The position numbers were made by a program, and so were the translations under genes. Below are positions 507 through 30,332 of a DNA stretch of 30,352 bases, one piece after another (the stretch's first letter is position 1; each line of letters opens with the position of its first letter). The stretch comes from a virus. The notes beneath the pieces were generated by a model that saw nothing but the letters and a program-made list of their open reading frames with translations, was not told the DNA's origin and did not search any database. The stretch covers positions 1 to 30,352 of IMG/VR virus record IMGVR_UViG_3300034104_006104. One strand, written 5' to 3'.

Positions 507-719
507 ATGGATATCAATAAAAAAATTGATGCTTATCTAAAAGAGGGTAGGCCAGTTGATGCAGACTTTATAATTGAAATTTATAAACACGCAAAAACAA
601 CCTACCCTGAAAAGGAGTTCAAGGATATTCAGAAAGATTTAAAAGTTTTAGTTAAACTGTTGAAAAAGAGCGGGACTGATAATACAATTGTTAAAATTAA
701 AAAGTCCCGCTTAAAATGA
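507..719 (+). CDS. Small lysine-rich protein of unknown function (70 aa)
   Basis: A short ORF begins at ATG 507; an in-frame TTG at 501 is a less likely start. It has a mixed charged, mostly helical composition (Lys/Asp/Glu/Ile) and ends with several lysines. Its TGA overlaps the ATG of the phosphoribosyltransferase gene (ATGA at 716-719), which suggests translational coupling. Its last codons contain one half of a 9-bp inverted repeat whose other half ends just before the downstream start codon. No motif or family is recognised. The tight fit between its neighbours on the same strand supports it being real. Confidence 0.6.
   Translation: MDINKKIDAYLKEGRPVDADFIIEIYKHAKTTYPEKEFKDIQKDLKVLVKLLKKSGTDNTIVKIKKSRLK
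669..711 (+). promoter_or_regulatory. 9-bp inverted repeat just upstream of the phosphoribosyltransferase start
   Basis: AGCGGGACT (669-677) is exactly complementary to AGTCCCGCT (703-711), with a 25-base AT-rich loop. The right arm ends four bases before the ATG at 716. The arms are far more GC-rich than their surroundings. A T-run lies beyond the left arm only on the minus strand, so it does not look like a plus-strand terminator. A role in controlling translation of the next gene, or in mRNA stability, is inferred. Confidence 0.4.
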
Positions 720-1165
720 ACGATGAATTAAATCTTACCTGGGCTGATGTTGAACAGGGTGTAAACATTATTATTAATAGAATCGGTAACAAGAAATATG
801 ACTATGTTGTTGGAATTGCAAATGGCGGTCTTATTCCTGCTACATTAATTGCCAAAAGACTTAAGCTAAAGACCATGTCAGTTGGATTAGAGTCTTACGA
901 AAATAAAGACTTTAAGAATGTTACTCTCTGGTCTGAAATTAATAAGAGGTTGTATATTTTACAACAACAAGGCTTATGTTTACTTGTTGACGACATAAGC
1001 GACTCTGGCAAATCTTTTAACTATATCAAGAATGCCTACTTGAAAAAAGAAGAAATTATTTGCGATACTGCATCTTTAGTTGTAAAGCCAAAGACAACAT
1101 TCATGCCTGATTATTTTGCAATGAGTGTGCATACTGACACTTGGGTTAAGTTTCCTTGGGAATAA
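716..1165 (+). CDS. Purine-type phosphoribosyltransferase
   Basis: The 149-aa protein has the type I phosphoribosyltransferase pattern. An early strand-loop with GIANGG (residues 33-38) is followed by the PRPP-binding motif LLVDDISDSGKSF (89-101), and the protein ends in KFPWE, as xanthine/guanine phosphoribosyltransferases often do. Such enzymes join a free purine base to PRPP to make a nucleoside monophosphate in the cytoplasm. The start is the ATG of an ATGA overlap with the preceding gene, and the stop lies one base before the dCMP deaminase start, so the two are co-transcribed nucleotide-metabolism genes. Substrate cannot be read from sequence; guanine or xanthine is most likely from the C-terminal motif. 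A possible link to the window's DNA modification is that DpdA-type enzymes release free guanine, which such an enzyme could salvage; that is inference. Confidence 0.8.
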   Translation: MNDELNLTWADVEQGVNIIINRIGNKKYDYVVGIANGGLIPATLIAKRLKLKTMSVGLESYENKDFKNVTLWSEINKRLYILQQQGLCLLVDDISDSGKSFNYIKNAYLKKEEIICDTASLVVKPKTTFMPDYFAMSVHTDTWVKFPWE

Positions 1166-1166
1166 T

Positions 1167-1676
1167 ATGGCCTCACAGAAAGATATTGACAAGGCATACT
1201 TGCGTATGTGTGTAGAGTGGGCTAGACTATCTACAGCTCGTCGACGCAAGGTTGGCTGTCTAATTGTTAAAAGTGGCCAGATAATCTCTGATGGTTATAA
1301 TGGTACTCCTAAAGGGTTTGATAACAATTGTGAAGAAGAAGTTAATGGAGAGCTAGTAACAAAATCAATTGTTCTTCATGCGGAGAGTAACGCCATTACT
1401 AAACTAGCTAAATCTAATAATTCTTCTGATGGTGCCACCTTATATGTTACTTGCTCTCCGTGCTTTGAATGTAGTAAGCTTATTATCCAGGCTGGTATAA
1501 AGAGAGTAGTACATTGCCACTTTTATCGAAATACAAGTGGCTTAGTGTTGCTTGATCAAGCTAATATTGAATGGAGTTTTTATGATCTTAGCTCAGAATT
1601 CTCTGCTGACCATTTTCAATCGATATTGCATTCTTCTTCTCGTTCACAGGAGGGTAAGCAGCAGTTGCAGCAGTAG
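1167..1676 (+). CDS. Deoxycytidylate (dCMP) deaminase
   Basis: This 169-aa protein has the zinc-dependent cytidine/dCMP deaminase signature: HAESNA (His71, Glu73) and SPCFEC (Cys99, Cys102), preceded by the substrate-loop region DGYNGTPKGF. The enzyme converts dCMP to dUMP, feeding dTMP synthesis during phage replication. The start is taken as ATG 1167, directly after the upstream stop, because an upstream in-frame start would add residues that overlap the previous gene and are not part of the family. The last 29 or so codons (1588-1676) overlap the end of the convergent hub gene, and these residues (Ser/Gln-rich) lie beyond the usual end of the fold, so the tail looks like an overprinted extension. 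Confidence 0.88.
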   Translation: MASQKDIDKAYLRMCVEWARLSTARRRKVGCLIVKSGQIISDGYNGTPKGFDNNCEEEVNGELVTKSIVLHAESNAITKLAKSNNSSDGATLYVTCSPCFECSKLIIQAGIKRVVHCHFYRNTSGLVLLDQANIEWSFYDLSSEFSADHFQSILHSSSRSQEGKQQLQQ

Positions 1677-5335: not shown

Positions 5336-5362
5336 TGATTCTCTGAGTTTTGACACTATAAT
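5335..5362 (+). promoter_or_regulatory. Possible sigma70-type promoter for the dpdA cassette
   Basis: TTGATT (5335-5340) and a perfect TATAAT (5357-5362) are 16 bases apart, directly at the start of the dpdA reading frame. The cassette needs its own promoter, because the 3.6 kb upstream is transcribed the other way. The -10 overlaps the first ATG (5361), so translation would have to begin at ATG 5370 on a leaderless transcript, or the promoter lies elsewhere. A TTGACA at 5350-5355 has no good partner. Confidence 0.25.
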
Positions 5363-6194
5363 GACAGAGATGAATATTAAAGTATCTCATGAAGTACCTA
5401 TTAAGCTCCTTGATTATTCTCGAAACTTTAACGATTATGACTACTGTCTGGTACACCTACTGGATCAGAAACCGGAGTATAAGAAATATTATCAGTCTTG
5501 TAAACTCTATGACCGAGAATTGCTCTTGGATAATAGTATTTTCGAGCTTGGTAAGGCTTTCGATTCTGATAAGTTTGCTGAAAAGGTTGTAGAAATTGAA
5601 CCTACTTATTACATTGTTCCTGACTCTCTGCAGAACTGTGAAGAGACTATTAGCAATTGGAAGAGTTTCGTTGCTAAGTATAATGACTTGCCTGGACTTA
5701 AAATTGGTGTCGTGCAAGGCAATACCTGGCGAGAACTTAAGTATTGCTATCAGTTCATGAACGAACATGCTGACTATATTGCAATCTCGTTCGATTATGC
5801 GTATTATTTGGTTACTGGAGAGTCTCCTACTAATAACAAGCTCGAGCTCTGGTGCTCTGGACGTCAACGACTCATTCAGCAACTTATGGATAGTGGCATC
5901 TGGAATACAAAGAAGCCTCATCACTTGCTTGGTTGTTCATTGGCTAAGGAGTTTAAGGCCTATATCGGTCAAACATCTATTCGCTCCGTCGATACTTCGA
6001 ACCCAGTTGTTGCAGCCTTGCATAATCTCAAGTATAACGGTGATCTTGGATTGAAGACTAAACCGAGTACCAAGTTGGCTGATCTTATTGACTCTGAAGT
6101 TAGCAATGAGCAAATGGATCTTGTTGAGTACAATGTTGGAGCCTTTAAGGAGATCCTTGGGCGTCCCTCTGATAACTTCCTTCGAAAATTTTAA
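5361..6194 (+). CDS. dpdA: DpdA-like DNA guanine transglycosylase (7-deazaguanine insertion)
   Basis: This 277-aa protein has the pattern of the tRNA-guanine transglycosylase superfamily in the shortened form seen in phage DpdA proteins. Visible elements are LLLDNSIFELG (54-64; DNS in place of the DSGGFQ motif), IVPDS (85-89), GVVQGNTW (116-123, matching the VQG motif), HLLGCSLAKE (188-197) and SVDTSNP (209-215, with Asp211 at the likely nucleophile position). DpdA enzymes exchange guanine in DNA for a 7-deazaguanine base, protecting phage DNA from restriction. The zinc site of bacterial TGT is not seen. Starts at 5361 or 5370 are both possible. It is the first gene of a four-gene plus-strand cassette with a formyltransferase and QueF, which strongly supports DNA rather than tRNA as the target. 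The DpdA subfamily cannot be assigned by eye. Confidence 0.8.
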   Translation: MTEMNIKVSHEVPIKLLDYSRNFNDYDYCLVHLLDQKPEYKKYYQSCKLYDRELLLDNSIFELGKAFDSDKFAEKVVEIEPTYYIVPDSLQNCEETISNWKSFVAKYNDLPGLKIGVVQGNTWRELKYCYQFMNEHADYIAISFDYAYYLVTGESPTNNKLELWCSGRQRLIQQLMDSGIWNTKKPHHLLGCSLAKEFKAYIGQTSIRSVDTSNPVVAALHNLKYNGDLGLKTKPSTKLADLIDSEVSNEQMDLVEYNVGAFKEILGRPSDNFLRKF

Positions 6195-6197
6195 ACT

Positions 6198-7127
6198 ATG
6201 AAGAAATGGATAGCATTTTTCTCTAAGTCAGGAAGCGAGATTGCTGAATTAAGCAATCGATTGGGACGGTGGCCTGATCTCATCGTTACTAATCGTAATG
6301 ATGTAAATGATTGTAATTTAGCATTAGTTCAATACATTCAGAACAACTTAGATAAGATTGAATATATTAAGAACGATCCATCTGAATTAGATTATACAAA
6401 TGCAATAAACTCTTTCTGGAGTACAGATTTGTTTATTACATTGCATGGATACATGCGGATCATTCCAAAGAAGATTTGTGAGACTTATGAGATTTATAAT
6501 GGGCACCCTGGGTTAATTACTAAGTACCCTGAACTCAAAGGTAAAGATCCACAGCGCAAGGCCTGGCTTGGCGCATATAAGACTTCTGGTTGTGTAATTC
6601 ATAAGGTTACTGCAGAGGTTGATGATGGTGAGGTTCTTGCTGAAGTTGAAGTTCCAATTGGTGGGACACTTGATGATACAATTAGCATCTTGCATAAGAA
6701 CTCTATTGATTTGTGGGAAAATTTCTTGAGAGATAAGCTTATAGAGAAATCTAAAATTACAACTGATTATAGAGAACTTGTAAGAAATCATGATTACTCA
6801 GTTGAATATTGTGAACATCATTACCCGGAGACTATGCAAGAGCTGAGACGTTTGCAAAAAGAAGAGTTTCGACTATTCTGTAAAAAGCAGTTTGATTATG
6901 GCCCTGGTAATATCTCGGTTGGTCAAGACACAACTACTGCAGATGGTAAGAGAGTTTCTCTCTGCTCTATCGTCTTTAGATGCAATGATAAAGTTCAGCG
7001 TTTGTTAAATCTTGTGGTTAAGAATAATAAGTCTGCTCAGAACGAACCTGTTATGGATGCTTTCGAGGATCTTTCTCTTTACGGAAAGATTGCAAAAATA
7101 GTTGATAAAGGTGTGTGGGGCAAGTAA
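6198..7127 (+). CDS. Formyltransferase (PurN-like) fused to a DUF1599/Nmad1-like domain; candidate preQ1 formyltransferase
   Basis: Residues 1-180 look like the 10-formyltetrahydrofolate-dependent formyltransferase fold. ITLHGYMRIIP (80-90) is followed by YNGHPGLITKYPELKG (100-115), holding the catalytic Asn101 and His103. SGCVIHKVTAEVDDGEVL (130-147) then supplies the third catalytic residue, Asp142 or Asp143. Residues about 205-309 look different and match the pattern of DUF1599 (nucleotide modification associated domain 1): CKKQFDYGPGNIS, then a basic NDKVQRLLNLV segment, and a final LSLYGKIA...GVWGK. The gene starts 3 bases after dpdA. PreQ1 carries a free aminomethyl group that a formyltransferase could acylate, and 7-(formylamino)methyl-7-deazaguanine is a reported phage DNA base attributed to an enzyme called DpdN. 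I infer that function here; whether the Nmad1 part binds nucleotide or DNA is unknown. Confidence 0.7.
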   Translation: MKKWIAFFSKSGSEIAELSNRLGRWPDLIVTNRNDVNDCNLALVQYIQNNLDKIEYIKNDPSELDYTNAINSFWSTDLFITLHGYMRIIPKKICETYEIYNGHPGLITKYPELKGKDPQRKAWLGAYKTSGCVIHKVTAEVDDGEVLAEVEVPIGGTLDDTISILHKNSIDLWENFLRDKLIEKSKITTDYRELVRNHDYSVEYCEHHYPETMQELRRLQKEEFRLFCKKQFDYGPGNISVGQDTTTADGKRVSLCSIVFRCNDKVQRLLNLVVKNNKSAQNEPVMDAFEDLSLYGKIAKIVDKGVWGK

Positions 7128-7136
7128 AATCAAAGC

Positions 7137-7823
7137 ATGAGAAAGCTGTTTACGTTTACTGGCGCTCAGAGTACTGGTAAGACTACTTTGCTTAATAAGG
7201 TAAAAGAATTGTATCCTAATCGATTTGAATATGTAACTGAGGTAACTCGTCGTATTCAGCGATTAGGAGTTTCTATTAATGATAATGCTAAAAACTATGA
7301 TTTGACTCAGTCTCTTATTATTGGAGATCATTTGATTAACTACATGAAGGTGCATGAGCAACGTGAAGAGAATGTTACTGATATCTTGCTCGATCGTTGC
7401 ATTGTAGATGGTTACATTTATACAAAGTACTTTTATGAGCAAGATAAAGTGTCTCGTACAGTAATGGACTTTGCTGAATATTGGTTTAAAGAACTAACTC
7501 CTAAATATGATGTTATTTTCTATACTAATCCTTCTGATGTTAAACTTGTTGATGACGGGGTTCGTAGTACTAGTAGTGGTTTTCGAGAAAGAATTATTGA
7601 ACTCTATAATACAGAATTTATCGATAAATATGATAATATCTGTACGTTAAATGGCTCTGTTGAAGAACGTATAGAAGTTATGAAAATTGGAATGTTGTAT
7701 AGTCAATGTAACAACTGCAATATTATGATTGATCTGGATGCTAGCAAGCCCATTCGGAAGCAAAATAATTATTCAGAATCTGCTGGACAATTGTGTGAAG
7801 GCTGCTATAATAATCAAAAATAA
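7137..7823 (+). CDS. P-loop kinase-like ATPase (AAA_28/NadR type) with C-terminal zinc-ribbon
   Basis: The N-terminus carries a Walker A motif GAQSTGKT (9-16), like the NadR-type AAA_28 nucleoside/nucleotide kinases. A DRCIVDGYIY segment in the middle suits a kinase lid or DRY-type motif, and VIFYTNP is a typical strand after it. The last 40 residues add four cysteines in two CxxC pairs (Cys191/194 and Cys220/223), a likely zinc ribbon not normally part of these kinases. It lies between the formyltransferase and QueF with short spacers, so it probably acts in the same pathway, perhaps on a modified nucleotide or as an ATP-driven accessory factor; this is inference. A second gene of the same broad family without the zinc tail is at 27457-28173. 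Confidence 0.65.
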   Translation: MRKLFTFTGAQSTGKTTLLNKVKELYPNRFEYVTEVTRRIQRLGVSINDNAKNYDLTQSLIIGDHLINYMKVHEQREENVTDILLDRCIVDGYIYTKYFYEQDKVSRTVMDFAEYWFKELTPKYDVIFYTNPSDVKLVDDGVRSTSSGFRERIIELYNTEFIDKYDNICTLNGSVEERIEVMKIGMLYSQCNNCNIMIDLDASKPIRKQNNYSESAGQLCEGCYNNQK

Positions 7824-7826
7824 ATT

Positions 7827-8717
7827 ATGAGTGACATTACAAAACATCTTGGTAAGACTAGTGCCTATAAGGCTACTTACGACAAGTCTTTGCTTGTTCG
7901 TGAACCTCGTCAACGCAATCGTACCTATCTTGGTATTCAAAACGAGAGTCTTCCGTTCGTTGGATATGATATCTGGAATGCCTTTGAGGTGTCGACTTTG
8001 CTTTCTAATGGGTGCCCTGTTAGTGTAATTGCTAAGGTTACGTATAACTGTGACTCTGAATACATTGTTGAGTCAAAGTCTATTAAGCTCTACTTTAACT
8101 CCTTTAATATGGAGAAGCGAGCTCATATCAATACTGTTGAAGATGCTATTGAGTTCATCGAAGAGACTGCTAGTCAAGACCTTTCTGATCTTCTTGAAAC
8201 TAATGTAATTGTTACTTGCTTTAAGACTAGTCAGTATGTTGTTAATGATAATCTTGCTGGTTATCCTGTTCTAGAGAATGAGGTGATGTATGGTGTTGAC
8301 GAAGAGTTTACTAGCTACTCTGAGAATCCTTTGCTCTTGAAGATTAGTGATGTAACTAAGAAGCCTGTTAAGCAGTACTTTAACTCTAAGCTATTGAAGT
8401 CTAACTGTAAGGTTACTAGTCAGCCTGACTGGGGTGATGTGTATATTTACTTGAAGTCTGATAAGCTTGTTGATAAAACTTCTCTGCTTAAGTATATTGT
8501 TTCATTCCGTGATGAGTGTCACTTCCATGAAGAGATTTGTGAAGCTATCTATAAACGACTTTGGGATAATTTTGAACCAGAAGAGTTGTTAGTGTTTTGC
8601 TTCTATGTTCGTCGTGGTGGTATTGATATTAATCCTATTCGAGCATCGAATATTAATCTAATCGATAATGATATGATTGATCCGTATTTGCCGTTTATTC
8701 GAACTGGCAGACAGTAA
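7827..8717 (+). CDS. queF: QueF, preQ0 (7-cyano-7-deazaguanine) reductase
   Basis: The 296-aa protein matches the long (E. coli-type) QueF from end to end. GYDIWNAFEVS (46-56) and VESKSIKLYFNSFN (81-94) are the substrate and NADPH-binding signatures. KSNCKVTSQPDWG (191-203) carries the catalytic Cys194 and Asp201. SFRDECHFHEE (226-236) has the conserved His/Glu, and the protein ends with YVRRGGIDINPIR (260-272). The enzyme reduces the nitrile of preQ0 to the aminomethyl group of preQ1 with NADPH, in the cytoplasm. Being the last gene of the cassette with dpdA and a formyltransferase, it predicts a preQ1-derived base in the phage DNA. The start follows the kinase stop by 3 bases, and a strong hairpin terminator follows the stop. 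Confidence 0.92.
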   Translation: MSDITKHLGKTSAYKATYDKSLLVREPRQRNRTYLGIQNESLPFVGYDIWNAFEVSTLLSNGCPVSVIAKVTYNCDSEYIVESKSIKLYFNSFNMEKRAHINTVEDAIEFIEETASQDLSDLLETNVIVTCFKTSQYVVNDNLAGYPVLENEVMYGVDEEFTSYSENPLLLKISDVTKKPVKQYFNSKLLKSNCKVTSQPDWGDVYIYLKSDKLVDKTSLLKYIVSFRDECHFHEEICEAIYKRLWDNFEPEELLVFCFYVRRGGIDINPIRASNINLIDNDMIDPYLPFIRTGRQ

Positions 8718-8723
8718 ACAAAG

Positions 8724-8753
8724 AAAAGGCCGATCTTTCGATCGGCCTTTTTT
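8724..8753 (+). terminator. Intrinsic terminator, probably bidirectional
   Basis: A perfect 12-bp stem, AAAAGGCCGATC (8724-8735) with GATCGGCCTTTT (8740-8751), has a TTTC loop and a run of T after it. The A-run on the left side becomes a T-run for transcripts coming from the capsid gene on the minus strand. The element sits in the 60-base gap between the convergent queF and capsid genes and can serve both. Confidence 0.9.
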
Positions 8754-16711: not shown

Positions 16712-17377
16712 TTAGTATACATCAAATCCAGAAACAGGTATGAAATTAGCGTCAATTACAAAAATATTATTAACAGACCCTTGATCTTTTGGAAACAACC
16801 AACCTTTTATAGTAAAGCTAGTATCTGCTGAGACTCTATAAGGAGTTGTACTATCAATATCTGTTGGATAGGACATGTTCATACTCTCAGACCATAACAC
16901 CTCTGTTCTTATCTCTTGAGGTACTTGCACGAAAGCTGGTGGTATTTTCCAAGATATAACTACGTAAGGGTTACTGTATGGTATGAAATTGCTTAGTATC
17001 TGATCCATATCTGTTTGATATTTGGTCAAGATACTCATGTTAACATTAATGTTGATTGGGGTTGGTTGAGGTAGAAAATCTGTTGTACCAACACCATTGT
17101 TAGCATAAAAAGAACCTAAAATCTTATTGAATACTCTTGAGCTATCTCTTTGAATACCACCAATTGTTACAGCAATTACTGGTAAAGTTAAATGCATTGA
17201 CTTGTTAACTAAGTCTTGTATAACTCTTTGTTTTGGTGAATAAACGTATGAAACTCTAAGTTTTTTCTCATCAGGTACTCTGTCTTTGTCATATCGATTA
17301 ATAACTACAGAGTTAAAGGCAGCTACGAACTGCGTAATCAGATCTTTTATTTCAAAATAGAATGGTTGATCTCTCAC
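16712..17377 (-). CDS. 15: Tail completion / sheath stabiliser protein (gp15-like)
   Basis: The 221-aa protein follows the T4 gp15 layout. It has an N-terminal F..FNSVVINRYDKDR, a RVSYVYSPKQRVIQDL strand-helix (about 42-57), and PVIAVTIGGIQRD. The central block PTPININVNMSILTKYQTDMDQILSNFIPYSNPYV (about 104-138) corresponds to IKMIYELSIFTRYEDDMFQIVEQILPYF in T4. Near the end is a beta region with TSFTIKGWLFP. The product caps the tail sheath and joins tail to head. It begins with a GTG at 17377, placed directly after a TATAAATA late promoter. The divergent neighbour is a glycosyltransferase-like gene on the plus strand. Confidence 0.78.
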   Translation of the reverse strand: MRDQPFYFEIKDLITQFVAAFNSVVINRYDKDRVPDEKKLRVSYVYSPKQRVIQDLVNKSMHLTLPVIAVTIGGIQRDSSRVFNKILGSFYANNGVGTTDFLPQPTPININVNMSILTKYQTDMDQILSNFIPYSNPYVVISWKIPPAFVQVPQEIRTEVLWSESMNMSYPTDIDSTTPYRVSADTSFTIKGWLFPKDQGSVNNIFVIDANFIPVSGFDVY

Positions 17378-17382
17378 AGAAA

Positions 17383-17390
17383 TATTTATA
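17383..17390 (-). promoter_or_regulatory. Late promoter TATAAATA upstream of gp15
   Basis: Exact consensus, in the 31-base divergent gap. T4 spacing puts the transcript start on the G of the GTG start codon (17377). Confidence 0.65.
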
Positions 17391-17408
17391 AGTAGTTTAG
17401 GCTTTTAT

Positions 17409-18296
17409 ATGTTGAAAGTTCTATTTATCAACAACTTCAATCAACCAGACTATTTATCTAACATGCTCTATATAGGGCTAGCTAATAAGCAAGATGTTGA
17501 ACTATATACTTATGCAGCTCCTTTTCACTTAATATCTGGCATTGGTTGGAATGATAAATTTATAGTTAATAGTAAATGGGAAGACAATATTAAAGCTCCA
17601 GGCTTTACAGTTTGTAGTAAAATTAAAAGAGGTCCTATTATAGATTTTGCACAAGAAATTAAATTTAGAATTCAAAATCATTTTTACGATAAAATTATCT
17701 ATTCTTCTATTTGGAGAGATCAAATGTACTTTGAAGACGTTATAAAGACCTATAGCAAAAAAGATATTATTATGATCGATGGAGATGATCATGAATTAAT
17801 ACTTGAGTCGGTTGCAGATAAAGGTATCTATTTTAAGAGAGAATTATTCATTGATAGAACGGATATTAGACCAATAGCAATGGCTATACCAGATTCTATT
17901 TTACAATCAGACTCTTCAACAAACAAAACACAGCTCTTTTCTACTGTATATCCAGGTAGACCTGAAACTTATATTTTTAAAACAGAACAAAGCTATTACG
18001 AAGATTACCAAAAATCGTATTTCGGTACTACATTTAAGAAGGGTGGTTGGGATTGCTTGAGACACTATGAAATTATAGGCAACAAATGCATCCCCTACTT
18101 TATAGGGTTAGAAGAATGCCCAAAAAATATTTTATTTAATTGGCCAAAAAAACTTATTTTAAAGACAAATGAGTACGCAAAAAACAGTATAGCGCCTCAA
18201 GAGTATGACGAACTCTTAGAAGAGCTATACTGTTTTGCGAAGCAGTATATGACTACATCTGCTTTAGCTAATTATGTTATTGAAACCTCTGAATGA
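17409..18296 (+). CDS. Glycosyltransferase-like protein
   Basis: The 295-aa protein begins with a Rossmann-like strand LKVLFINNFNQ and has a second strand with KDIIMIDGDDHE (about 117-128). The C-terminal half has FKKGGWDCLRHYEIIGNKCIPYFIGLEECP (about 210-239). That block resembles the donor-binding region of GT-B and exostosin-like transferases (D-x-LRHYE-x(3)-G-x-IP). I read it as a glycosyltransferase of unknown acceptor. It is alone on the plus strand between the late module and the helicase operon, and its last 20 bases overlap the helicase gene end. Substrates could be phage proteins, DNA or host glycans; nothing in the sequence decides. Confidence 0.5.
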   Translation: MLKVLFINNFNQPDYLSNMLYIGLANKQDVELYTYAAPFHLISGIGWNDKFIVNSKWEDNIKAPGFTVCSKIKRGPIIDFAQEIKFRIQNHFYDKIIYSSIWRDQMYFEDVIKTYSKKDIIMIDGDDHELILESVADKGIYFKRELFIDRTDIRPIAMAIPDSILQSDSSTNKTQLFSTVYPGRPETYIFKTEQSYYEDYQKSYFGTTFKKGGWDCLRHYEIIGNKCIPYFIGLEECPKNILFNWPKKLILKTNEYAKNSIAPQEYDELLEELYCFAKQYMTTSALANYVIETSE

Positions 18297-19944
18297 AGTA
18301 TTGAGGTAGCTTATCCTTACACTTCATGAGCACAAACTTAATTGCCCCATCTAAGATATAAGTATCACAATGATCTTCTTCAGTTCTGATACCACGACCA
18401 CAAGCCTGAACAAGACTGCTTAGCATCTTATTCTCGTACCATTCAGGATCAAGCTTAAAGAGAGTTTCTACCCGCTTAGAGCCAAGTGGCAAGTAAGGTA
18501 GTTTCAACACAATCTGAAAGCGAGCTAGCTCATCCTTAAGATCAACCCCATGAGTAAGTGAAGGAGATACTAGAACAGTTGGCTTGTCAGACTCTACATG
18601 CTCTTTAACAATATCTTCGTTAGTTTTACCTGATTGACGGTAAAGCATTCGATCACCATAGTCATCAAATTTAGCTTTAACGTATTCAGTAATTTTAAAC
18701 GAATGTGTATGAATAATACCTTTATCGTTCTTATACTTGTCAACTAGCTCTTTTGCAATATTGCAAACATGAGGTAGGTTCTGTTCAAGGTTAGCATGAT
18801 TTAGCTTATACTTAGTATGAACAAAAATTGGAGCCTTCTTAGGATCAAACGATGAAGGCATTTCAACATACTCATACTCTTCAATGCCAAGACTCTTAGC
18901 AAAATTAACTGGATCAATAATAGTTGCTGACATCAGAATAATCTTCTCACCATGATTAAAGATATGACTTGAGAGCTTATCAACCTTCAACGGAGAGAAG
19001 TTAACAGCTGTAGCAGACTTCTCAATCACATACTTACAATCATTCCAATGACCAGTAACAGTCTTAACAGAGTGCACAACATTATTCAAGCCACGAAGCT
19101 TATTTTGCTGAGCATCAGAAAGCTCTTTCTTATTACGCTTTTCAGTTAGAATCTTGATTTGTTCTTCAATAACACACAATAGATTAGTAAGCCATTCAAT
19201 GACTCGATTAGGTACATCAGTAGCTAGCTTTTGAGTATGAATTCCAAGCTGAGCCAAACGCTCATAGCTAATATCAAACCCGAAACGCTTTACCAATTCG
19301 TCTTCAAGCTCTGCAGCCTCATCACAAATCAAAAGCTCTTTACGCTTCAGTTGGTCTGGTAGAGCCAAAAACATACTATAATTAAGAATGCCAAAATTAC
19401 TAGTAACAACTCGATTACGAGCCTCATAGTACGGGCAAATACACTTTTTCCAGCAATCATCTTTAATCTTTCCAACAACAACACAAGGAGCAATTTCAAC
19501 ATCCTTAGTTTCATCAATTGTACATTGATAGTTAGATTTACCTTTTAAAATATCAGAATCATCAAAAAACTCCTTGTATTGGTTCTGCAAATTCTTTGAA
19601 ATTGTCAATACCATTGAACCAAAAGGTTGTTGCTTATCAATTTCTTCTTGATTAGAGAATTCACCAGACTGATCCATCTGATAAATAGAATACGAATCAA
19701 CCAAATGCTTAAAGTCTTTGCTACAAGAGTCAGTCAAGTTAGCTACAGTGCGAGAAATATAAGACTTACCTGAGCCTGTAGGCGCACATAGAATAAGAAA
19801 CTTTTTATCTCCACGAAGAAACTTTTCAATCTTCTTTAAGACAGCAGCCTGCTGTGCTCGAGGGGTGTGGTTACTTGGAAATGCTGATAGGATGTCTTTC
19901 TGTTTCACTACGTTGAGTATAGCGTCACGTGAAATGAAAAGCAA
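18277..19944 (-). CDS. Rad3/XPD/DinG-type superfamily 2 DNA helicase with Fe-S cluster cysteines
   Basis: The 555-aa protein has Walker A APTGSGKSY (54-62) and a Walker B LICDEAAELED (205-215; DEAA in place of DEAH). LMSATI forms motif III, and QACGRGIRTEED is motif VI near the end. Between motifs I and II are five cysteines (141, 154, 164, 168, 170), enough for the 4Fe-4S cluster that defines the XPD/DinG group. A replication or repair helicase role is likely. The listed ATG overlaps the upstream gene by 20 bases; a GTG at 19908 would avoid this overlap and still keep all motifs. Its end overlaps the convergent glycosyltransferase-like gene by 20 bases. Confidence 0.85.
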   Translation of the reverse strand: MLFISRDAILNVVKQKDILSAFPSNHTPRAQQAAVLKKIEKFLRGDKKFLILCAPTGSGKSYISRTVANLTDSCSKDFKHLVDSYSIYQMDQSGEFSNQEEIDKQQPFGSMVLTISKNLQNQYKEFFDDSDILKGKSNYQCTIDETKDVEIAPCVVVGKIKDDCWKKCICPYYEARNRVVTSNFGILNYSMFLALPDQLKRKELLICDEAAELEDELVKRFGFDISYERLAQLGIHTQKLATDVPNRVIEWLTNLLCVIEEQIKILTEKRNKKELSDAQQNKLRGLNNVVHSVKTVTGHWNDCKYVIEKSATAVNFSPLKVDKLSSHIFNHGEKIILMSATIIDPVNFAKSLGIEEYEYVEMPSSFDPKKAPIFVHTKYKLNHANLEQNLPHVCNIAKELVDKYKNDKGIIHTHSFKITEYVKAKFDDYGDRMLYRQSGKTNEDIVKEHVESDKPTVLVSPSLTHGVDLKDELARFQIVLKLPYLPLGSKRVETLFKLDPEWYENKMLSSLVQACGRGIRTEEDHCDTYILDGAIKFVLMKCKDKLPQYFIQRFQ

Positions 19945-20260
19945 GCTTATTGTTTAGGTATTTAGACTTATAAAGTTTGTAATACTCATCTATTTTAATT
20001 TTCAGAGTAATATCATCTGTAAGAAGCTCTACTTTATAGTCGAATAAAAATCCAGCTGCAGTTTCAACTATTTTAAATGGTAGTGGTATTTCCAAATACT
20101 TGTTCTTGTTATTTGAATTGATACAAAAAACTAAATAGTATTCTTTTGGAGCAAATAAGATAAACTTACCTGTTCTCAATACTTTTTCATTCAAAAGAAT
20201 TTGTATGTTCTTTTGAAAGTGTTTCTGTAATTTTTGCTCCAGTACAAGACTATCTATCAC
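19925..20260 (-). CDS. Unknown 111-aa protein
   Basis: The ORF begins with GTG at 20260 in line with the operon, just after the previous stop at 20275. It has a helical N-terminus (LVLEQKLQKHFQKNIQILL), then several beta strands with YYLVFCIN and LEIPLPFKI, and a lysine-rich end. No motif is recognised. It lies in the helicase/co-chaperonin operon and overlaps the helicase start, so it could be an accessory factor; no function is claimed. Confidence 0.55.
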   Translation of the reverse strand: MIDSLVLEQKLQKHFQKNIQILLNEKVLRTGKFILFAPKEYYLVFCINSNNKNKYLEIPLPFKIVETAAGFLFDYKVELLTDDITLKIKIDEYYKLYKSKYLNNKLAFHFT

Positions 20261-20274
20261 AAATATTAATTACA

Positions 20275-20652
20275 CTAAACGCGCATAAAGTCAATTTTTT
20301 GCTTCTCTGTCATAAAGGCTAGCTTCTCATTATAGTATTGCCAAAATTCATCATTAGCCTTTATTGTAGCTACAACTTGACAGGCTGCTACATTAACTTG
20401 TCTATAGTCTTGTTCAAAAATATCCCAGGTAACAACTAAACCTTTTAATTCTGGATTATAATCTAATTGCTGGTGTGGTGGGCGGTAGTTAAGAGCAACT
20501 CTACCCTTTGTGCTGTTTAAGAGAGAATAGCTGTTGGTACAAAGCATTCTTCTAAAAAGAGGTTCGCCAGGCTGCGGTCTGCGCCTGGCGAATTTAAGTT
20601 CTACTACGTTTTGCTGTAAGAGAAGTTTTAACTGATTTAGGCTTACTTTCAC
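20275..20652 (-). CDS. Putative SH3-barrel-like phage protein (125 aa)
   Basis: The start is a GTG at 20652, placed immediately after an AATAAATA motif. A strand-rich core (VVELKFARRRPQPGEPLFRRMLCTN, about 16-40) is followed by LVVTWDIFEQDYRQVNV (72-88). The pattern of a beta-hairpin with RRMLCT and a W-D-x(4)-D-x-R resembles the small SH3-like barrel proteins (DUF2693-like) common in T4-like phages. The match is weak. A GC-rich 10-bp inverted repeat lies inside the gene (20563-20592). Confidence 0.45.
   Translation of the reverse strand: MKVSLNQLKLLLQQNVVELKFARRRPQPGEPLFRRMLCTNSYSLLNSTKGRVALNYRPPHQQLDYNPELKGLVVTWDIFEQDYRQVNVAACQVVATIKANDEFWQYYNEKLAFMTEKQKIDFMRV
20563..20592 (-). repeat. 10-bp inverted repeat inside a coding sequence
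   Basis: TTCGCCAGGC (20563-20572) and GCCTGGCGAA (20583-20592) form a perfect stem with a 10-base loop. It is GC-rich in an AT-rich genome and lies within the SH3-like gene, where it codes for the ARRRPQPGE stretch. There is no T-run beside it on either strand. Confidence 0.5.
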
Positions 20653-20657
20653 CTAAT

Positions 20658-20665
20658 TATTTATT
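20658..20665 (-). promoter_or_regulatory. Late-promoter-like AATAAATA before the GTG-started gene
   Basis: Minus-strand GTTAATAAATAATTAGGTG. The octamer touches the stop codon of the co-chaperonin gene, and the predicted transcript start is the G of GTG 20652. Confidence 0.5.
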
Positions 20666-21101
20666 AACTCATTGTAACTGCTGGCTGTTCTGCTTTAGAG
20701 CAAACACCGAAAATACGAGTCTCATCCAAGAAAATAGACTGCTTAATCTTCCCAAGACCTCTTACAACAACGTTTGATACTGGAATGCCTTTATCATTTG
20801 GAAAGCAAACGTAATCATCAACCTTAACATTCTTGCAATCAGGACCAGCAAGAATAATCTGTCCAATTCTCCAGGCCGCCTTGGTGTGGTCGATTGGTAC
20901 TAGAATACCGTTTCTCATAACAGTTTGATTACTGTCAGGTGTATCAACATAGCGAACTAGAATAATATTATCAAGAACCTTATCAAGTTCAAAGTCATCA
21001 ATAAGAGTGAATGTATCACTGGCATGTTTGTCAAAGTTCAATGCGCTTGTTTTTTGCATATGAACTGGGACAGGAACATTAGTAGGAAGTGTTGGTACCA
21101 T
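20664..21101 (-). CDS. GroES/gp31-like co-chaperonin
   Basis: The 145-aa protein has an N-terminal extension of about 45 residues (VPVPVHMQKTSAL...) and then a GroES-type core. The core includes DNIILVRYVDTPDSN, a mobile-loop-like MRNGILVPIDH and WRIGQIILAGPDCKNVKVDDYVCFP, the dome and strand pattern seen in GroES and T4 gp31. DETRIFGV closes the fold. A phage co-chaperonin lets host GroEL fold the large capsid protein, which fits the gp23-type capsid here. It lies between the gp62-like and SH3-like genes in the minus operon. No phage motif proves chaperonin binding; the fold pattern is the evidence. Confidence 0.7.
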   Translation of the reverse strand: MVPTLPTNVPVPVHMQKTSALNFDKHASDTFTLIDDFELDKVLDNIILVRYVDTPDSNQTVMRNGILVPIDHTKAAWRIGQIILAGPDCKNVKVDDYVCFPNDKGIPVSNVVVRGLGKIKQSIFLDETRIFGVCSKAEQPAVTMS

Positions 21102-21123
21102 ATTTGTATATAGTTATTATTAG

Positions 21124-21483
21124 TTACTTTTCAAGATGCTCTGCGTACATTTTAATCTCTCGCTGAGATAATTCAAGATTGCGAGCAAGCATTTCCAGAT
21201 TTTCATCCTCCTTAGTCTTTTCTTTCTTTACTTTTTTAATGTATTCGATTTTCTTATATCGCATGCGAGGAATTACATTAATAAGAAACTTATTTTGTTC
21301 ATCCTTAGACAAACACATCCAATAGCGATTAGATGTTTCGTTAACAATAGTAGCAACTTCACCACTATGCATACTCAACCACCTATTAACAAGGAAAAAC
21401 TGATACTCCCGCTCTTCTTCAACAGAAATATCAGTCTTCTTTTTTAACGTGGTGATATTAGTAATAATATCAAAAATCGTCAT
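21124..21483 (-). CDS. 62: Clamp loader small subunit (gp62-like)
   Basis: The 119-aa protein resembles the short gp62 proteins of marine T4-like phages. It begins with an FDIITNITTLKKK helix, has FFLVNRWLSM (29-38, the NR-x-LS signature) and a DEQNKFLINVIPRMRYKKIEY block, and ends with a helical segment (LSQREIKMYAEHL). gp62 works with gp44 to load the sliding clamp gp45 on DNA. The length is shorter than T4 gp62 (187 aa), but this is usual in related phages. Its ATG overlaps the stop of the DUF366-like gene by one base. The gp44 and gp45 genes are not in this window. Confidence 0.68.
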   Translation of the reverse strand: MTIFDIITNITTLKKKTDISVEEEREYQFFLVNRWLSMHSGEVATIVNETSNRYWMCLSKDEQNKFLINVIPRMRYKKIEYIKKVKKEKTKEDENLEMLARNLELSQREIKMYAEHLEK

Positions 21484-22064
21484 TAGATAACCTTACTAGT
21501 AGCAATAAAGATATCATCAGTAATAGCATAAAAAATCTCAACAACCTTCTTCATAAACTCTTCAACTTGCTGATGAGTCATGTTAGTCGAGAATGCAAAA
21601 GCAGGAGCCTTCTTACCAGCAGTAACGTTAATAGCGGTATGACCTAGAGCAGCACCATTAACCAAATGAGTAATACTCACACTAGCCTTACCCTTGGGTT
21701 GAATAATACCATGCTGGTTATGCTCAGCATGAACAATCAAATCATCCCCATCAACCTCAATAGGTTTATTGATAATGGAAGTAAGAATATTTGCAATCTG
21801 AGTATTAAAGAGACGCTGAAATGAAACAGCCGCGAAAGCATCAATATTAGGAATTTCCCAGCAAAAGTTAACTGCGTCATCACTGTAAATGTAGTCATTA
21901 TTAAGAATATCTTCTGTATCAATCATACCCTCAGCTTCAACATGCATCGGTGCACGGAATGCAACAATGTTGCCGATAGGCAAGGTACGATCTCGAAAGA
22001 ACTTATAGGCAAAGCGCTTATGAATGAGATTGCCATCGTAGATCGGAATATTATTCAATATCAT
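21483..22064 (-). CDS. DUF366-like protein of unknown function
   Basis: The 193-aa protein resembles the archaeal DUF366 family as I recall it. An opening IPIYDGNLIHKRFAYKFF is followed by GNIVAFRAPMHVEAEGMIDTEDI and YSDDAVNFCWEI. A second half has VDGDDLIV, KGKASVSITHL and GHTAINVTA. The VDGDDLIV...KGKASVSI arrangement is also reminiscent of the biotin/lipoate-ligase fold, so an acyl-transfer or ligase chemistry is conceivable; this is a weak inference. It overlaps the glycosyltransferase gene before it by four bases (ATGA) and gp62 after it by one base. Given the QueD/QueE/QueF/DpdA genes in the window, a role in base modification is worth testing, but neither position nor motif proves it. 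Confidence 0.5.
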   Translation of the reverse strand: MILNNIPIYDGNLIHKRFAYKFFRDRTLPIGNIVAFRAPMHVEAEGMIDTEDILNNDYIYSDDAVNFCWEIPNIDAFAAVSFQRLFNTQIANILTSIINKPIEVDGDDLIVHAEHNQHGIIQPKGKASVSITHLVNGAALGHTAINVTAGKKAPAFAFSTNMTHQQVEEFMKKVVEIFYAITDDIFIATSKVI

Positions 22065-25900: not shown

Positions 25901-26111
25901 TTTTGCAATGAAAATTTAAAAACCAATTAGACTGTGCTTTTGTATGAGCAGTAGCCTTTTTGGTTTTTAGCTTTCTAGCCTTGCTACAAGTCATCTTGCC
26001 TTTACCGAATTTCTTGGTAGCTTTAGCTTTAAGAGTACCTTTACCACCTCGCGGAGTGGTGCGGGTGGTTTTTTCTAAAAGAGTAAAAAATCTCTTTTCG
26101 TACTTGTTCAC
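25896..26111 (-). CDS. Small lysine-rich, probably nucleic-acid-binding protein (71 aa)
   Basis: Starts at GTG 26111 shortly after an AATAAATA motif. The composition is strikingly basic (many Lys, few acidic residues). It has an RGGKGTLKAKATKKFGKGKMTC segment and then CSKARKLKTKKATAHTKAQSNWF, with only two cysteines. The charge suggests DNA or RNA binding, as in histone-like or internal head proteins; no named family is recognised. Its late-type promoter suggests a virion or packaging role. Confidence 0.55.
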   Translation of the reverse strand: MNKYEKRFFTLLEKTTRTTPRGGKGTLKAKATKKFGKGKMTCSKARKLKTKKATAHTKAQSNWFLNFHCKK

Positions 26112-26117
26112 TACAAT

Positions 26118-26125
26118 TATTTATT
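26118..26125 (-). promoter_or_regulatory. Late-promoter-like AATAAATA upstream of the lysine-rich gene
   Basis: Minus-strand AGAATAAATAATTGTAGTG. The predicted transcript start is one base before GTG 26111. Confidence 0.5.
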
Positions 26126-26157
26126 CTTTTTAGTTTGTTCGCGCCAAAGATATTAGT

Positions 26158-27448: not shown

Positions 27449-27456
27449 ATGTCTCT

Positions 27457-28173
27457 TTATTTATTTTTTTCAGGTTTCTTTTGCTCAGGTCTTGCCAAGG
27501 CTTCTAAGGCCTCAATATCTTCCATGCCGAGATTTGGATCGTTAAAGATATTAGCATTAGGGTCCATTGAGTCTCCATCCGCATCAAGATAGAGCTTCAT
27601 GATCTGAATACGTTCATTACGCTCACCGTATGTTTCAATAATAGGTGGTCGATCATCAGCATGAAAATAATTAGATTTTGGATTATCTCTATTTTCCATT
27701 GCAAACACCTTAAAGAGATTATCAATCTCAACTCGCATAAAAGGGTTAGCATCTCTCATACCATCTTCTTGAATATCAGGAGTCTTGGCTGCTCTTGTAA
27801 TTGGGATATAGAAAATAATATCAATATGTTTTAGAGCATCACGAACAACTGGGATACACTTCTTAATAAAGTCAAAATCAATATCTCCAACGTTGTGATG
27901 ATAGGCCCACATAGAATACACGAGATTATCTAGCGGACAACGATCAAATACAATTCTATCACTTTTGCGAGTACCTTCTAGTTGCTTGACCATAAAGTCA
28001 AGAATAGCCTGTTGGGATTCTTTAGTAGTTTTTGAGCTATGGGTTAAACCTTTTTCAACTAAAACATCTCTATATGTCTTTTCTGGAGATTTATAGTTAG
28101 TCCACTCAGCAAGAAAATCTTTAATCAGAGTAGATTTGCCCATGCACTGGGCACCGGAAATGGCAATTCTCAT
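27457..28173 (-). CDS. P-loop kinase-like ATPase (AAA_28/NadR type)
   Basis: The 238-aa protein has Walker A GAQCMGKS (7-14), a DRCPLDNLVYS segment in the middle and a strand with HIDIIFYIP. The same overall pattern is seen in the kinase of the dpdA cassette (7137-7823). The C-terminal 40 residues are acidic and then Lys-rich, with no zinc-ribbon. It is probably a nucleoside/nucleotide kinase; the substrate is unknown. Its stop codon is part of the AATAAATA motif upstream of the nucleotidyltransferase gene. Confidence 0.65.
   Translation of the reverse strand: MRIAISGAQCMGKSTLIKDFLAEWTNYKSPEKTYRDVLVEKGLTHSSKTTKESQQAILDFMVKQLEGTRKSDRIVFDRCPLDNLVYSMWAYHHNVGDIDFDFIKKCIPVVRDALKHIDIIFYIPITRAAKTPDIQEDGMRDANPFMRVEIDNLFKVFAMENRDNPKSNYFHADDRPPIIETYGERNERIQIMKLYLDADGDSMDPNANIFNDPNLGMEDIEALEALARPEQKKPEKNK
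27458..27465 (-). promoter_or_regulatory. Late-promoter-like AATAAATA upstream of the nucleotidyltransferase
   Basis: Minus-strand AAAATAAATAAAGAGACATATG, overlapping the kinase stop codon. It predicts a 4-base leader before ATG 27448. Confidence 0.45.
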
Positions 28174-28208
28174 GATACTATTATATAGTTCATGTATTGA
28201 TAAATCTA

Positions 28209-28493
28209 CTAAAAGTTAAACATTGGTGACTCTCCCTGAAAGAACTTAACAGACCCAACATTCAATAGAGATTTAATCTTTTGTTTATCTTCCTGTGTAA
28301 GAAGTGTAAACATATTTCTATATGTCTCGTCTGCTATATTAATGTTCTTTCGCTTGCACATACCACAGCTAGTCTTTCTAGCAGTACTAACAACACCCAT
28401 GAAGCTTTGTATCTTAGTGCTTGTAAAGTGAGTATTGTTTGTATTAAGAAAATCGTAAAACTCGTTGAAGTTTTTAAAAATATGTTCGCTCAT
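28209..28493 (-). CDS. Unknown 94-aa protein with a CxxC motif
   Basis: Starts with the ATG of an ATGA overlap with the membrane-protein gene. It contains SCGMCKRK in the middle and a helical LTQEDKQKIKSLLN near the end. One further Cys pair is absent, so a full zinc finger is not evident. No family is recognised; the gene lies between the kinase and the membrane protein. Confidence 0.55.
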   Translation of the reverse strand: MSEHIFKNFNEFYDFLNTNNTHFTSTKIQSFMGVVSTARKTSCGMCKRKNINIADETYRNMFTLLTQEDKQKIKSLLNVGSVKFFQGESPMFNF

Positions 28494-28874: not shown

Positions 28875-29606
28875 TTAAACCTTGAGAGCTTTATTCCACA
28901 AGACCAATTGCAATCGAGGACTAAAGTTAAAACCATGCTTCTTGCAAACCTCTGCTACCCAAGGAGCAACAGCATTATGCTCATCTCGAGAACCACAGCA
29001 AGGCATCAACCAAATTTGATCTTCAGTAATACTAAAAGGTTTGATATACTTTTCGATAATCTCTTCAACATCACTATCTTTCTGCACAACAAACTTAAAG
29101 TAAGAGTAGATACTAGCGTGGTAAGCAATAACCTCTGGAACGTATCTCTTCTCTTCTGGATCTCCGTTAGTAGACAACTTAGGAGACACAGTAAAAGTAG
29201 CATTTATACTTTCCCAAAAACTTGAAGGATTAATCGTACAGTTAGTTTCAAAATCAATAACAGGATAGAAATCGAACTTTCTGAAAAAGGCTTCAATAAA
29301 CTCAATCAAAGCCTTTTGCTGAATAAGAGGTTCACCACCAGTAATCTTAAGAACATGATTGCCTTTCAACTTATTTAGGTAATCATTATCTTCAAAGATC
29401 TTAAAGATCTCTTCAAAGGTTAGCTTATTCTTCTTAGACCAGCTAACATAGCTATCACAACCAAACGGAGAATCAGGAGACTTAAACCCGATGCAAGTCA
29501 AGTTGCACATTGCCAATCGCATGAAGATGCTTGGCTTACCAACCAAATGACCTTCACCTTCGATAGTTTCAAAGACAAAGTCATCAGAGAGAAATAATGA
29601 ACTCAT
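28875..29606 (-). CDS. queE: QueE, 7-carboxy-7-deazaguanine synthase (radical SAM)
   Basis: The 243-aa protein shows the QueE start ETIEGEGHLVGKPSIFMRLA (13-32) and the radical SAM GGEP motif (90-93). The cluster cysteines are spaced unusually: Cys34 and Cys38 as in the normal CxxxC, but the third is Cys50 (GCDS), so an extra nine residues sit between the second and third. QueE turns 6-carboxy-tetrahydropterin into 7-carboxy-7-deazaguanine with SAM and Mg2+. The gene starts 30 bases after the QueD stop, so the two consecutive steps are co-transcribed. Confidence 0.85.
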   Translation of the reverse strand: MSSLFLSDDFVFETIEGEGHLVGKPSIFMRLAMCNLTCIGFKSPDSPFGCDSYVSWSKKNKLTFEEIFKIFEDNDYLNKLKGNHVLKITGGEPLIQQKALIEFIEAFFRKFDFYPVIDFETNCTINPSSFWESINATFTVSPKLSTNGDPEEKRYVPEVIAYHASIYSYFKFVVQKDSDVEEIIEKYIKPFSITEDQIWLMPCCGSRDEHNAVAPWVAEVCKKHGFNFSPRLQLVLWNKALKV

Positions 29607-29636: not shown

Positions 29637-30332
29637 TCAAGCCCATTTAGTACCAAAGTCCCAGGTACTAGGACGATTCTTACCACCGACTGGAACCCCT
29701 TGCGGAGGAGCATCAGTCTGCTTAGGGGTAACCCTAACTGGTTTATTTGTGTCATAAGCCAAGGCTTCAGTCTGCTTTTCAGACTTAGCAGGCGGAGCCC
29801 AGACAGGTTCAGCAGTCTTACCCTTCTTGCCTTTGCCTTTAGCAGGCGCAGCCTCAGCTTCATCAGCAACTTCTGCTGTAGATTCTTGAGCAGTTTCAGC
29901 AGAATAAATAGCAGAGTTCTTCTCATGCTCAAACACCTCAACAGAATGAGCTCGAACTCGACCGCTAGTCTTATGCTTCACGTAGCTATCTGCAGCATTA
30001 AAGCAATACTTTGCAAACAACTCAATTCCAACCCCTTCATCCATAACAACGATTGAGGCAGCTCCAGCCTTTTCAAGAGCCTCAAACTCTTTCATAGCAG
30101 GGTCATTCTTAGCAAGAACGAGAGTATGATCAAACTTCTCCTGCAAGAATCCCTTCAATTCGTCAAAGTCTCCGAAGTCAACAACCCAATTGTTGCCGTC
30201 AAGAGAATCAGAAGTAAACGTAAATTTACCAACCAATCGATAACCATGAATGAATCTGCAATGGGACTTTGCATTAGGCTGACGAAATGCAGCACTTCCG
30301 AGTTCAATAACCTTCGTGGAATAATATCTCAT
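29637..30332 (-). CDS. queD: QueD-like 6-carboxy-tetrahydropterin synthase with a long basic/proline tail
   Basis: Residues 1-143 fit the T-fold QueD/PTPS family: SAAFRQPNAKSHCRFIHGYRL (13-33), NNWVVDFGDFDELKG (47-61), FDHTLVLA (67-74) and RAHSVEVFEHEKNSA (127-141). QueD converts dihydroneopterin triphosphate to 6-carboxy-tetrahydropterin. The usual zinc-binding histidine after AA is Phe here, and HGH is HGY; the SHC...HGY form is, as I recall, typical of a phage/proteobacterial subgroup. Residues about 144-231 form a Ala/Glu, then Lys/Gly, then Pro-rich tail not needed for the fold. It is the first gene of the queD-queE pair at the right end; the ATG is clear at 30332. Confidence 0.82.
   Translation of the reverse strand: MRYYSTKVIELGSAAFRQPNAKSHCRFIHGYRLVGKFTFTSDSLDGNNWVVDFGDFDELKGFLQEKFDHTLVLAKNDPAMKEFEALEKAGAASIVVMDEGVGIELFAKYCFNAADSYVKHKTSGRVRAHSVEVFEHEKNSAIYSAETAQESTAEVADEAEAAPAKGKGKKGKTAEPVWAPPAKSEKQTEALAYDTNKPVRVTPKQTDAPPQGVPVGGKNRPSTWDFGTKWA

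What the first reader, a model, noticed from the sequence alone, without database searches (positions are those of the whole stretch)
5361..8717. Compact phage cassette predicting preQ1-based, possibly formylated, 7-deazaguanine DNA
Four plus-strand genes with 3-9 base spacers encode a DpdA-like transglycosylase, a PurN-type formyltransferase, a P-loop kinase and QueF. QueF makes preQ1 from preQ0, DpdA puts deazaguanine bases into DNA, and preQ1 has a free amine for the formyltransferase. This set predicts 2'-deoxy-7-(formylamino)methyl-7-deazaguanine, a base recently reported in phages. QueD and QueE at 28.9-30.3 kb provide the upstream steps.
Basis: partly seen in the sequence, partly recalled or inferred. 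Interest (0 to 1): 0.88.

Follow-up and report, generated by a model that had tools for sequence, protein, structure and literature searches.

The report
Phage operon for formylated deazaguanine DNA
A large bacterial virus carries a compact operon that very probably swaps guanine in its DNA for a formylated 7-deazaguanine; relatives show that a kinase and a nucleotide-hydrolase-like partner belong to the set, which raises the testable question of whether the odd base is made before the DNA is copied rather than after.

Summary
Four + strand genes at 5361-8717 encode a TGT-fold DpdA, a PurN-type formyltransferase, a P-loop kinase and QueF. QueE, QueD, FolE and QueC lie in the same phage (a 230 kb record 100% identical to the window's end), so it encodes the whole route to preQ1. 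The same gene order is in Flavobacterium phage immuto and in about 75 distinct metagenomic phage loci. The predicted product, formylated preQ1 in DNA, is well supported as a prediction but has not been measured.

Its C-terminus (about aa 195-309) is a DUF1599/Nmad1 domain, a separate gene in most relatives. In a marine sister group that slot holds DUF5664 (PF18909), a family shown elsewhere to turn dATP/dGTP into dNMP. This partner occurs in 72 of 77 loci with the formyltransferase and in 0 of 20 without it. The kinase is in all 97 QueF-containing loci. A purely post-replicative model needs neither.

Best reading: a member of the known DpdA/QueF/formyltransferase type, in a variant whose architecture suggests, without proof, modification or formylation at the nucleotide level.

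The parts
5361..6194 (+). DpdA-like guanine transglycosylase, 277 aa, TIM barrel; no zinc-site cysteines conserved
   Evidence: 45.5% to annotated phage DpdA; AF2 pLDDT 91.5; Foldseek top 50 all TGT, best E 3.4e-9; invariant D57, D88, D211, near-invariant Q119
6198..6752 (+). N-terminal PurN-type formyltransferase domain (about aa 1-185)
   Evidence: PF00551 E=2e-13; Foldseek to PurN/GART E 2e-12; PurN N106, H108, D144 and S8, G11 all invariant
6780..7124 (+). C-terminal DUF1599/Nmad1 domain (about aa 195-309), fused here, a separate gene in most relatives
   Evidence: Separate ORF in most loci; weak PF07659 hits in 6 of 14 members, best E=0.0026; tblastn relatives annotated DUF1599; helical bundle in the model
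7137..7823 (+). P-loop kinase (AAA_28; NadR/dNK/thymidylate-kinase-like) with GAQSTGKT P-loop and DRC..DG..YT motif
   Evidence: PF13521 E=1e-16; phrog_2107 E=5e-26; profile hits NadR, dNK, TMPK; in all 97 QueF+ loci
7827..8717 (+). QueF, preQ0 nitrile reductase to preQ1
   Evidence: TIGR03138 E=1.6e-74, below its equivalog cut-off; 3bp1 E=3.6e-42 with SNC-x6-D aligned
8724..8751 (.). 12-bp GC-rich hairpin, terminator-like, between QueF and the convergent major head protein gene
   Evidence: one found, 1.2 expected by chance; read here as a terminator from its place
28875..29606 (-). QueE (radical SAM, CDG synthase)
   Evidence: phrog_2076 E=4e-44; TIGR03963 E=4.5e-15
29637..30332 (-). QueD (PTPS family); FolE follows just past the window end in the 230 kb record
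   Evidence: PTPS E=7e-16; window 26001-30352 = G001 16786-21138 at 100%; FolE at G001 21294-21830, QueC at 37607-38263
27457..28173 (-). Second kinase, paralogue of the cassette kinase, beside QueE/QueD; possible accessory
   Evidence: AAA_28 E=1e-12; a second copy in 14 of the 15 kinase-positive records searched

Best explanation
The operon makes a formylated preQ1 form of guanine for the phage's own DNA. FolE, QueD, QueE and QueC (all phage-encoded) make preQ0, and QueF reduces it to preQ1. The DpdA-type transglycosylase exchanges guanine for preQ1 on a deoxyribose. The PurN-type enzyme formylates the free aminomethyl group with 10-formyl-THF, giving 2'-deoxy-7-(formylamino)methyl-7-deazaguanosine, which should hide the DNA from host nucleases. 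Supported by computation: the gene content, folds, catalytic residues and conservation of the set. Inferred: the final base, its amount, and the order of steps. The kinase and the Nmad1 domain are parts of the system; I think they handle the nucleotide pool (kinase: modified dNMP to dNDP, or guanine recycling; Nmad1: a dNTP pyrophosphohydrolase-like partner of the formyltransferase).
For: DpdA: all top 50 PDB folds are TGTs. FT: PurN fold and catalytic triad intact. QueF. FolE and QueC in the same phage. Same order DpdA-FT-kinase-QueF in Flavobacterium phage immuto, annotated DpdA/formyltransferase/QueF, with QueC, QueD, QueE and FolE. FT occurs only with QueF: 66 of 66, i.e. only where its amine substrate would be made. 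Loci without FT keep DpdA-kinase-QueF (20 distinct), as expected for a separable decoration step. Phage Dp-1, with QueF and a DpdA, has dPreQ1 in its DNA (PMC6884629).
Against: No nucleoside analysis exists for this phage. FT is only about 21% identical to PurN and its substrate is untested. QueF scores below its equivalog cut-off, and QueF/QueF-L calls are known to be hard (PMC6884629). Conserved kinase, Nmad1/DUF5664 and GMP reductase are not explained by the simple scheme.
Confidence: 0.72

Rival explanations
1. Nucleotide-level route. dGTP is cut to dGMP (by the Nmad1/DUF5664 partner or a host enzyme), DpdA exchanges the base on the mononucleotide, FT formylates the preQ1 deoxynucleotide, the cassette kinase makes dNDP, host NDK makes dNTP, and polymerase inserts it.
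For: Kinase in 97/97 QueF+ loci and 5/21 others, and beside remote DpdA homologues in Campylobacter phages CP220 and CC_R7 and Bacillus-group phages BSTP12 and Youna2. Among 50,697 phage records the kinase's homologues (E<1e-3) occur only in Flavobacterium immuto and Campylobacter phages, nearly the set with this DpdA. The FT partner slot is Nmad1 or DUF5664, never both; 72/77 FT+ and 0/20 FT-. DUF5664 converts dATP/dGTP to dNMP, and the Z-DNA phage enzyme DmtZ exchanges bases on dNMP (PMC12884076). FT keeps PurN's S8/G11 phosphate-loop residues, and GAR, like dPreQ1MP, is a 5'-phosphoribosyl compound with a distal amine. A modified-dGTP route was proposed for Campylobacter phages (PMC6884629).
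Against: Known TGT/DpdA enzymes act on nucleic acid. Nine related DpdA loci with que genes lack any such kinase. 9g and Dp-1 modify DNA with no such kinase in the stretches examined. Nmad1 has no proven activity, and hhalign found no significant link to DUF5664.
Confidence: 0.38
2. Post-replicative DpdA on DNA with the kinase and GMP reductase as guanine-recycling helpers: each exchange frees one guanine, which is salvaged (PRTase to GMP) and converted to IMP or GDP.
For: GMP reductase in or beside the cassette in 25 of 97 distinct loci; a PRTase gene at 716-1165 in the window and one near the que genes in immuto.
Against: GMP reductase is missing from the window phage record; the kinase resembles NadR/dNK/TMPK rather than guanylate kinase specifically; this does not explain why Nmad1/DUF5664 follows FT.
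Confidence: 0.3
3. The formyltransferase is a purine-synthesis PurN acquired as a metabolic gene, unrelated to the base.
For: Nearest characterised fold is PurN; cyanophages carry PurN.
Against: FT is 41-51% identical within the cassette family but about 21% to E. coli PurN, whereas P-SSM2 PurN is 35% to E. coli PurN; it occurs only with QueF.
Confidence: 0.06
4. The enzymes modify tRNA (queuosine path), not DNA.
For: FolE-QueDEC-F and TGT are the queuosine set.
Against: The DpdA is short, has no conserved Cys for the TGT zinc site and is most like annotated phage DpdA; no QueA/QueG was looked for or seen.
Confidence: 0.05

Closest known systems
Flavobacterium phage vB_FspM_immuto_2-6A cassette (NC_055915, gp202-gp206)
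   Same: DpdA, formyltransferase, kinase, QueF in this order, with QueC, QueD, QueE and FolE elsewhere
   Different: Only 45-47% identical for DpdA, FT and QueF and 28% for the kinase; FT is a single domain with no Nmad1; a small ORF lies between DpdA and FT
DpdN/fdPreQ1 system of Cui et al. 2023 (doi 10.1093/nar/gkad657; recalled, paper not held)
   Same: Predicted product and enzyme logic: QueF, DpdA, formyltransferase
   Different: From memory that paper treats insertion as post-replicative; the kinase and the Nmad1/DUF5664 partner found here are not accounted for in what I recall of it
Campylobacter Firehammervirus CP220 group (dADG in DNA)
   Same: Same DpdA family (44.5-45.7%) next to the same kinase family
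   Different: No FT, Nmad1 or QueF hit in the 12.8 kb examined
DpdA of Enterobacteria phage 9g and Streptococcus phage Dp-1
   Same: TGT-type enzyme with preQ0 genes; Dp-1 makes dPreQ1 (PMC6884629)
   Different: No hit to the DpdA, kinase, FT or Nmad1 profiles of this family in the stretches examined
Z-DNA phage toolkit (PurZ0, DmtZ, DUF5664; PMC12884076)
   Same: DUF5664-type dNTP to dNMP enzyme beside a base-exchange enzyme
   Different: Adenine replaced, not guanine; DmtZ is NDT-like, not TGT-like; the window itself has Nmad1, not DUF5664

Membership tests
DpdA (DNA-guanine transglycosylase) | TGT-type TIM-barrel fold | tested here: met
   Foldseek top 50 all TGT
DpdA (DNA-guanine transglycosylase) | Conserved catalytic aspartates | tested here: met
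   D57, D88, D211 invariant over 31 diverse relatives; their match to TGT D102/D156/D280 is my reading of motif order, not a structural superposition
DpdA (DNA-guanine transglycosylase) | Acts on DNA | not testable with these tools
   Needs enzyme assay
DpdA3 subfamily (Cui 2023) | Subfamily assignment | tested here: inconclusive
   45-46% to CP220-type DpdA, but no labelled DpdA3 reference was available
QueF nitrile reductase | Catalytic Cys and Asp (SNC-x6-D) | tested here: met
   Aligned with Vibrio QueF 3bp1
QueF nitrile reductase | Equivalog model TIGR03138 above cut-off | tested here: not met
   251 bits against 293
Formyltransferase (PF00551/PurN fold) | N, H, D catalytic residues and PF00551 over cut-off | tested here: met
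PurN (GAR transformylase) equivalog | TIGR00639 above cut-off | tested here: not met
   52.4 against 150.1 bits
DpdN (dPreQ1 formyltransferase) | Homology to the published DpdN | not testable with these tools
   Reference paper and sequence label not held
DUF1599/Nmad1 | PF07659 match over cut-off | tested here: not met
   Best member E=0.0026, below gathering score; the window copy itself has no hit; homologues annotated DUF1599 by tblastn, E about 3e-4 to 6e-4
DUF5664 dATP/dGTP pyrophosphohydrolase | PF18909 in the window phage | tested here: not met
   No hit in the 230 kb record of this phage; hit E=2.3e-22 for the protein in the same slot of sister phages

The most novel reading that the evidence does not exclude
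In this phage group a TGT-family enzyme works as a deoxynucleotide base exchanger: dNTP pyrophosphohydrolase (Nmad1 or DUF5664), DpdA, PurN-like formyltransferase and a dedicated kinase form a pathway that makes formyl-preQ1 dGTP for the polymerase, giving genome-wide guanine replacement before, not after, replication.
Probability: 0.33. Interest if true: 0.85.

Novelty: new variant of a known kind. Interest (0 to 1): 0.6.

Why it matters
Formylated preQ1 DNA is, from memory, a recently reported base; this shows that its predicted cassette is widespread in metagenomic contigs of large phages and can be predicted from a compact operon. More usefully, a kinase present in every QueF-containing locus and an FT-specific partner of a dNTP-hydrolase type make the question 'is 7-deazaguanine put into DNA before or after replication?' directly testable with a few purified proteins. 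If the nucleotide route holds, it would be a new use of the TGT fold, parallel to the route for 2-aminoadenine DNA, and a way to make modified dNTPs.

Tried and rejected
PDB sequence search with the DpdA profile gave only chance hits, so fold comparison was used. hhalign of Nmad1 against DUF5664 aligned only the shared YG..N motif, not significant: homology between the two slot-mates is not claimed. PDB search with Nmad1 gave nothing, and with DUF5664 only chance hits. Cui et al. 2023 and the 2024 MMBR review are not held; several literature searches were unproductive. Rejected: the kinase as a hydroxymethyluracil-type DNA kinase (preQ1 has no hydroxyl to phosphorylate; from knowledge, not tested).
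Full report
What was claimed and what is there. The four ORFs exist at the stated places, on one strand, with spacers of 3, 9 and 3 bases. The window is a 30 kb fragment of a phage record with head genes that match the PHROGs families major head protein, head maturation protease and portal. The operon runs on + between minus-strand structural genes, a baseplate-hub-like gene with a further gene on one side and the major head protein gene on the other, and ends in a terminator-like hairpin at 8724-8751. Families of the hub-like and head genes occur near the cassette in 58 and 48 of 79 distinct loci.

The pathway is complete in the phage. Window 26001-30352 is 100% identical to a stretch of a 230 kb record that also holds the cassette. 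FolE starts about 160 bases beyond the point matching the window's end, and QueC about 16 kb further on. All 8 large records tested have QueC and all 13 tested have FolE. With QueD, QueE and QueF this gives GTP to preQ1 without the host (pathway: PMC6884629).

The transglycosylase. No Pfam or NCBIfam model recognises the 277-aa protein. It is 45.5% identical to the protein annotated DpdA in Flavobacterium phage immuto and 44.5-45.7% to 'hypothetical' proteins of Campylobacter phages, a group that the 2019 survey listed as carrying preQ0/G+ genes but no DpdA, while noting dADG in their DNA (PMC6884629). The AF2 model (pLDDT 91.5) matches only TGTs among the top 50 PDB hits. Aspartates D57, D88 and D211 are invariant; no cysteine is invariant, so the TGT zinc site appears to be lost.

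The formyltransferase is a fusion. Aa 1-180 have the PurN fold with N106, H108 and D144 of PurN conserved. Aa 195-309 form a separate helical domain, which is a stand-alone gene in most relatives and belongs, by tblastn neighbours and weak Pfam scores, to DUF1599/Nmad1, 'nucleotide modification associated domain 1'. FT is 41-51% identical across most of the cassette family but about 21% to E. coli PurN, while a cyanophage PurN is 35% to E. coli PurN, so it is a distinct family, not a purine-synthesis gene.

QueF carries the SNC-x6-D active site aligned with Vibrio QueF and is 47% identical to immuto QueF. It scores under the NCBI equivalog cut-off, so preQ1 is the likely but not certain product. 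In phage Dp-1 a phage QueF does yield dPreQ1.

Conservation of the set. Loci were collected in IMG/VR by FT, by DpdA, by a DpdA profile and by the DUF5664 protein. In 118 distinct DpdA loci with enough downstream sequence, QueF is present in 97, and all 97 have the kinase; of 21 without QueF, 5 have it. Of the 97, 77 have FT and 20 do not. The core is therefore DpdA-kinase-QueF, with FT a separable module. Counts are not corrected for relatedness, and two of the four searches were seeded with FT or its partner, so the share of FT+ loci is inflated. On a DpdA tree the gene contents need 10 changes in all against 60 for shuffled labels, so the contents follow lineages and the Fisher p-values overstate independence.

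The partner slot. Between FT and kinase lies Nmad1 (fused in the window's clade) or, in a marine group, a 114-aa protein with PF18909/DUF5664 (E=2.3e-22; dATP/dGTP diphosphohydrolase). The two are never found together, also over whole records (11 records with Nmad1, 2 with DUF5664, none with both). One of them is present in 72 of 77 FT+ loci and 0 of 20 FT- loci. DUF5664 of phage Wayne turns dATP, dGTP and dUTP into monophosphates, and in such phages a base-exchange enzyme working on dNMP (DmtZ) gives a second route to dZTP (PMC12884076). That is a close functional parallel. It is inference that Nmad1 has the same activity: profile comparison did not show homology.

The kinase. It is NadR/dNK/thymidylate-kinase-like, with an intact P-loop. 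In 50,697 phage records its homologues at E<1e-3 are only in immuto and Campylobacter phages, nearly the same set as this DpdA. Even remote DpdA homologues (about 25%) in Campylobacter phage CC_R7 and in Bacillus-group phages BSTP12 and Youna2 sit next to a thymidylate-kinase-like gene. It does not accompany every DpdA: a group with 32-39% identity (L099-L108 and relatives) has que genes and no kinase, also not elsewhere in its two records searched, and profile searches found none in the stretches of 9g and Dp-1 examined.

Other inserted genes. A GMP reductase lies in or beside the cassette in 25 of 97 loci, 24 of them FT+; single or few loci carry a tryptophan-halogenase-like enzyme, an ornithine-cyclodeaminase-like enzyme or a radical SAM-SPASM protein.

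How it most likely works. Shown by computation: gene content, folds, catalytic residues, conservation, complete precursor path. Inferred: preQ1 is exchanged for guanine and formylated, giving formylated preQ1 in DNA. Two schemes remain for the level at which this occurs. In the DNA-level scheme, kinase and GMP reductase recycle guanine; in the nucleotide-level scheme, pyrophosphohydrolase, base exchange, formylation and kinase make a modified dNTP. The FT-specific partner, its fusion to FT in the window, the kept PurN phosphate-loop residues and the constant kinase favour the second; the known habits of TGT enzymes and kinase-free relatives favour the first. I give the nucleotide scheme about 0.33-0.38.

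Novelty. The FT-Nmad1 fusion, the kinase present in every QueF-containing locus and the Nmad1/DUF5664 slot make it a variant worth testing. I could not check whether others have noted these features.

Noticed in passing
window 27457-28173 (-): A second kinase of the same family beside QueE/QueD; a paralogue is found in 14 of the 15 kinase-positive records searched. Its role is unknown.
   Followed up: partly
window 7690-7820: The cassette kinase of the window's clade has a C-terminal extension with two CxxC pairs (CNNC...CEGC), absent from other cassette kinases; looks like a small zinc ribbon.
   Followed up: no
L094:6813-8387: A flavin-dependent tryptophan-halogenase-like gene (PF04820 E=2e-75) sits between DpdA and FT; possible extra base decoration.
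   Followed up: no
L015:6563-7534 and about 24 other loci: GMP reductase gene inside or next to the cassette; suggests purine pool rebalancing.
   Followed up: partly
L078:8637-9953 and L192: Radical SAM-SPASM protein between kinase and QueF in two loci; L014 has an ornithine-cyclodeaminase-like gene between FT and Nmad1.
   Followed up: no
L138:4782-9920 (Microcystis phage Mel-JY01): Nmad1 relative in a replication operon with a GuaB/GMP-reductase-type gene 3.5 kb away and no FT in the 10 kb seen.
   Followed up: no
window 28875-29606 (-): QueE has an unusual spacing of the putative cluster cysteines (CNLTC...FGC), unlike CxxxCxxC; it may be a variant cluster motif.
   Followed up: no
window 716-1165 (+) and 1155-1676 (+): Phosphoribosyltransferase and dCMP deaminase genes upstream of the cassette; the former could salvage guanine released by DpdA.
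   Followed up: no
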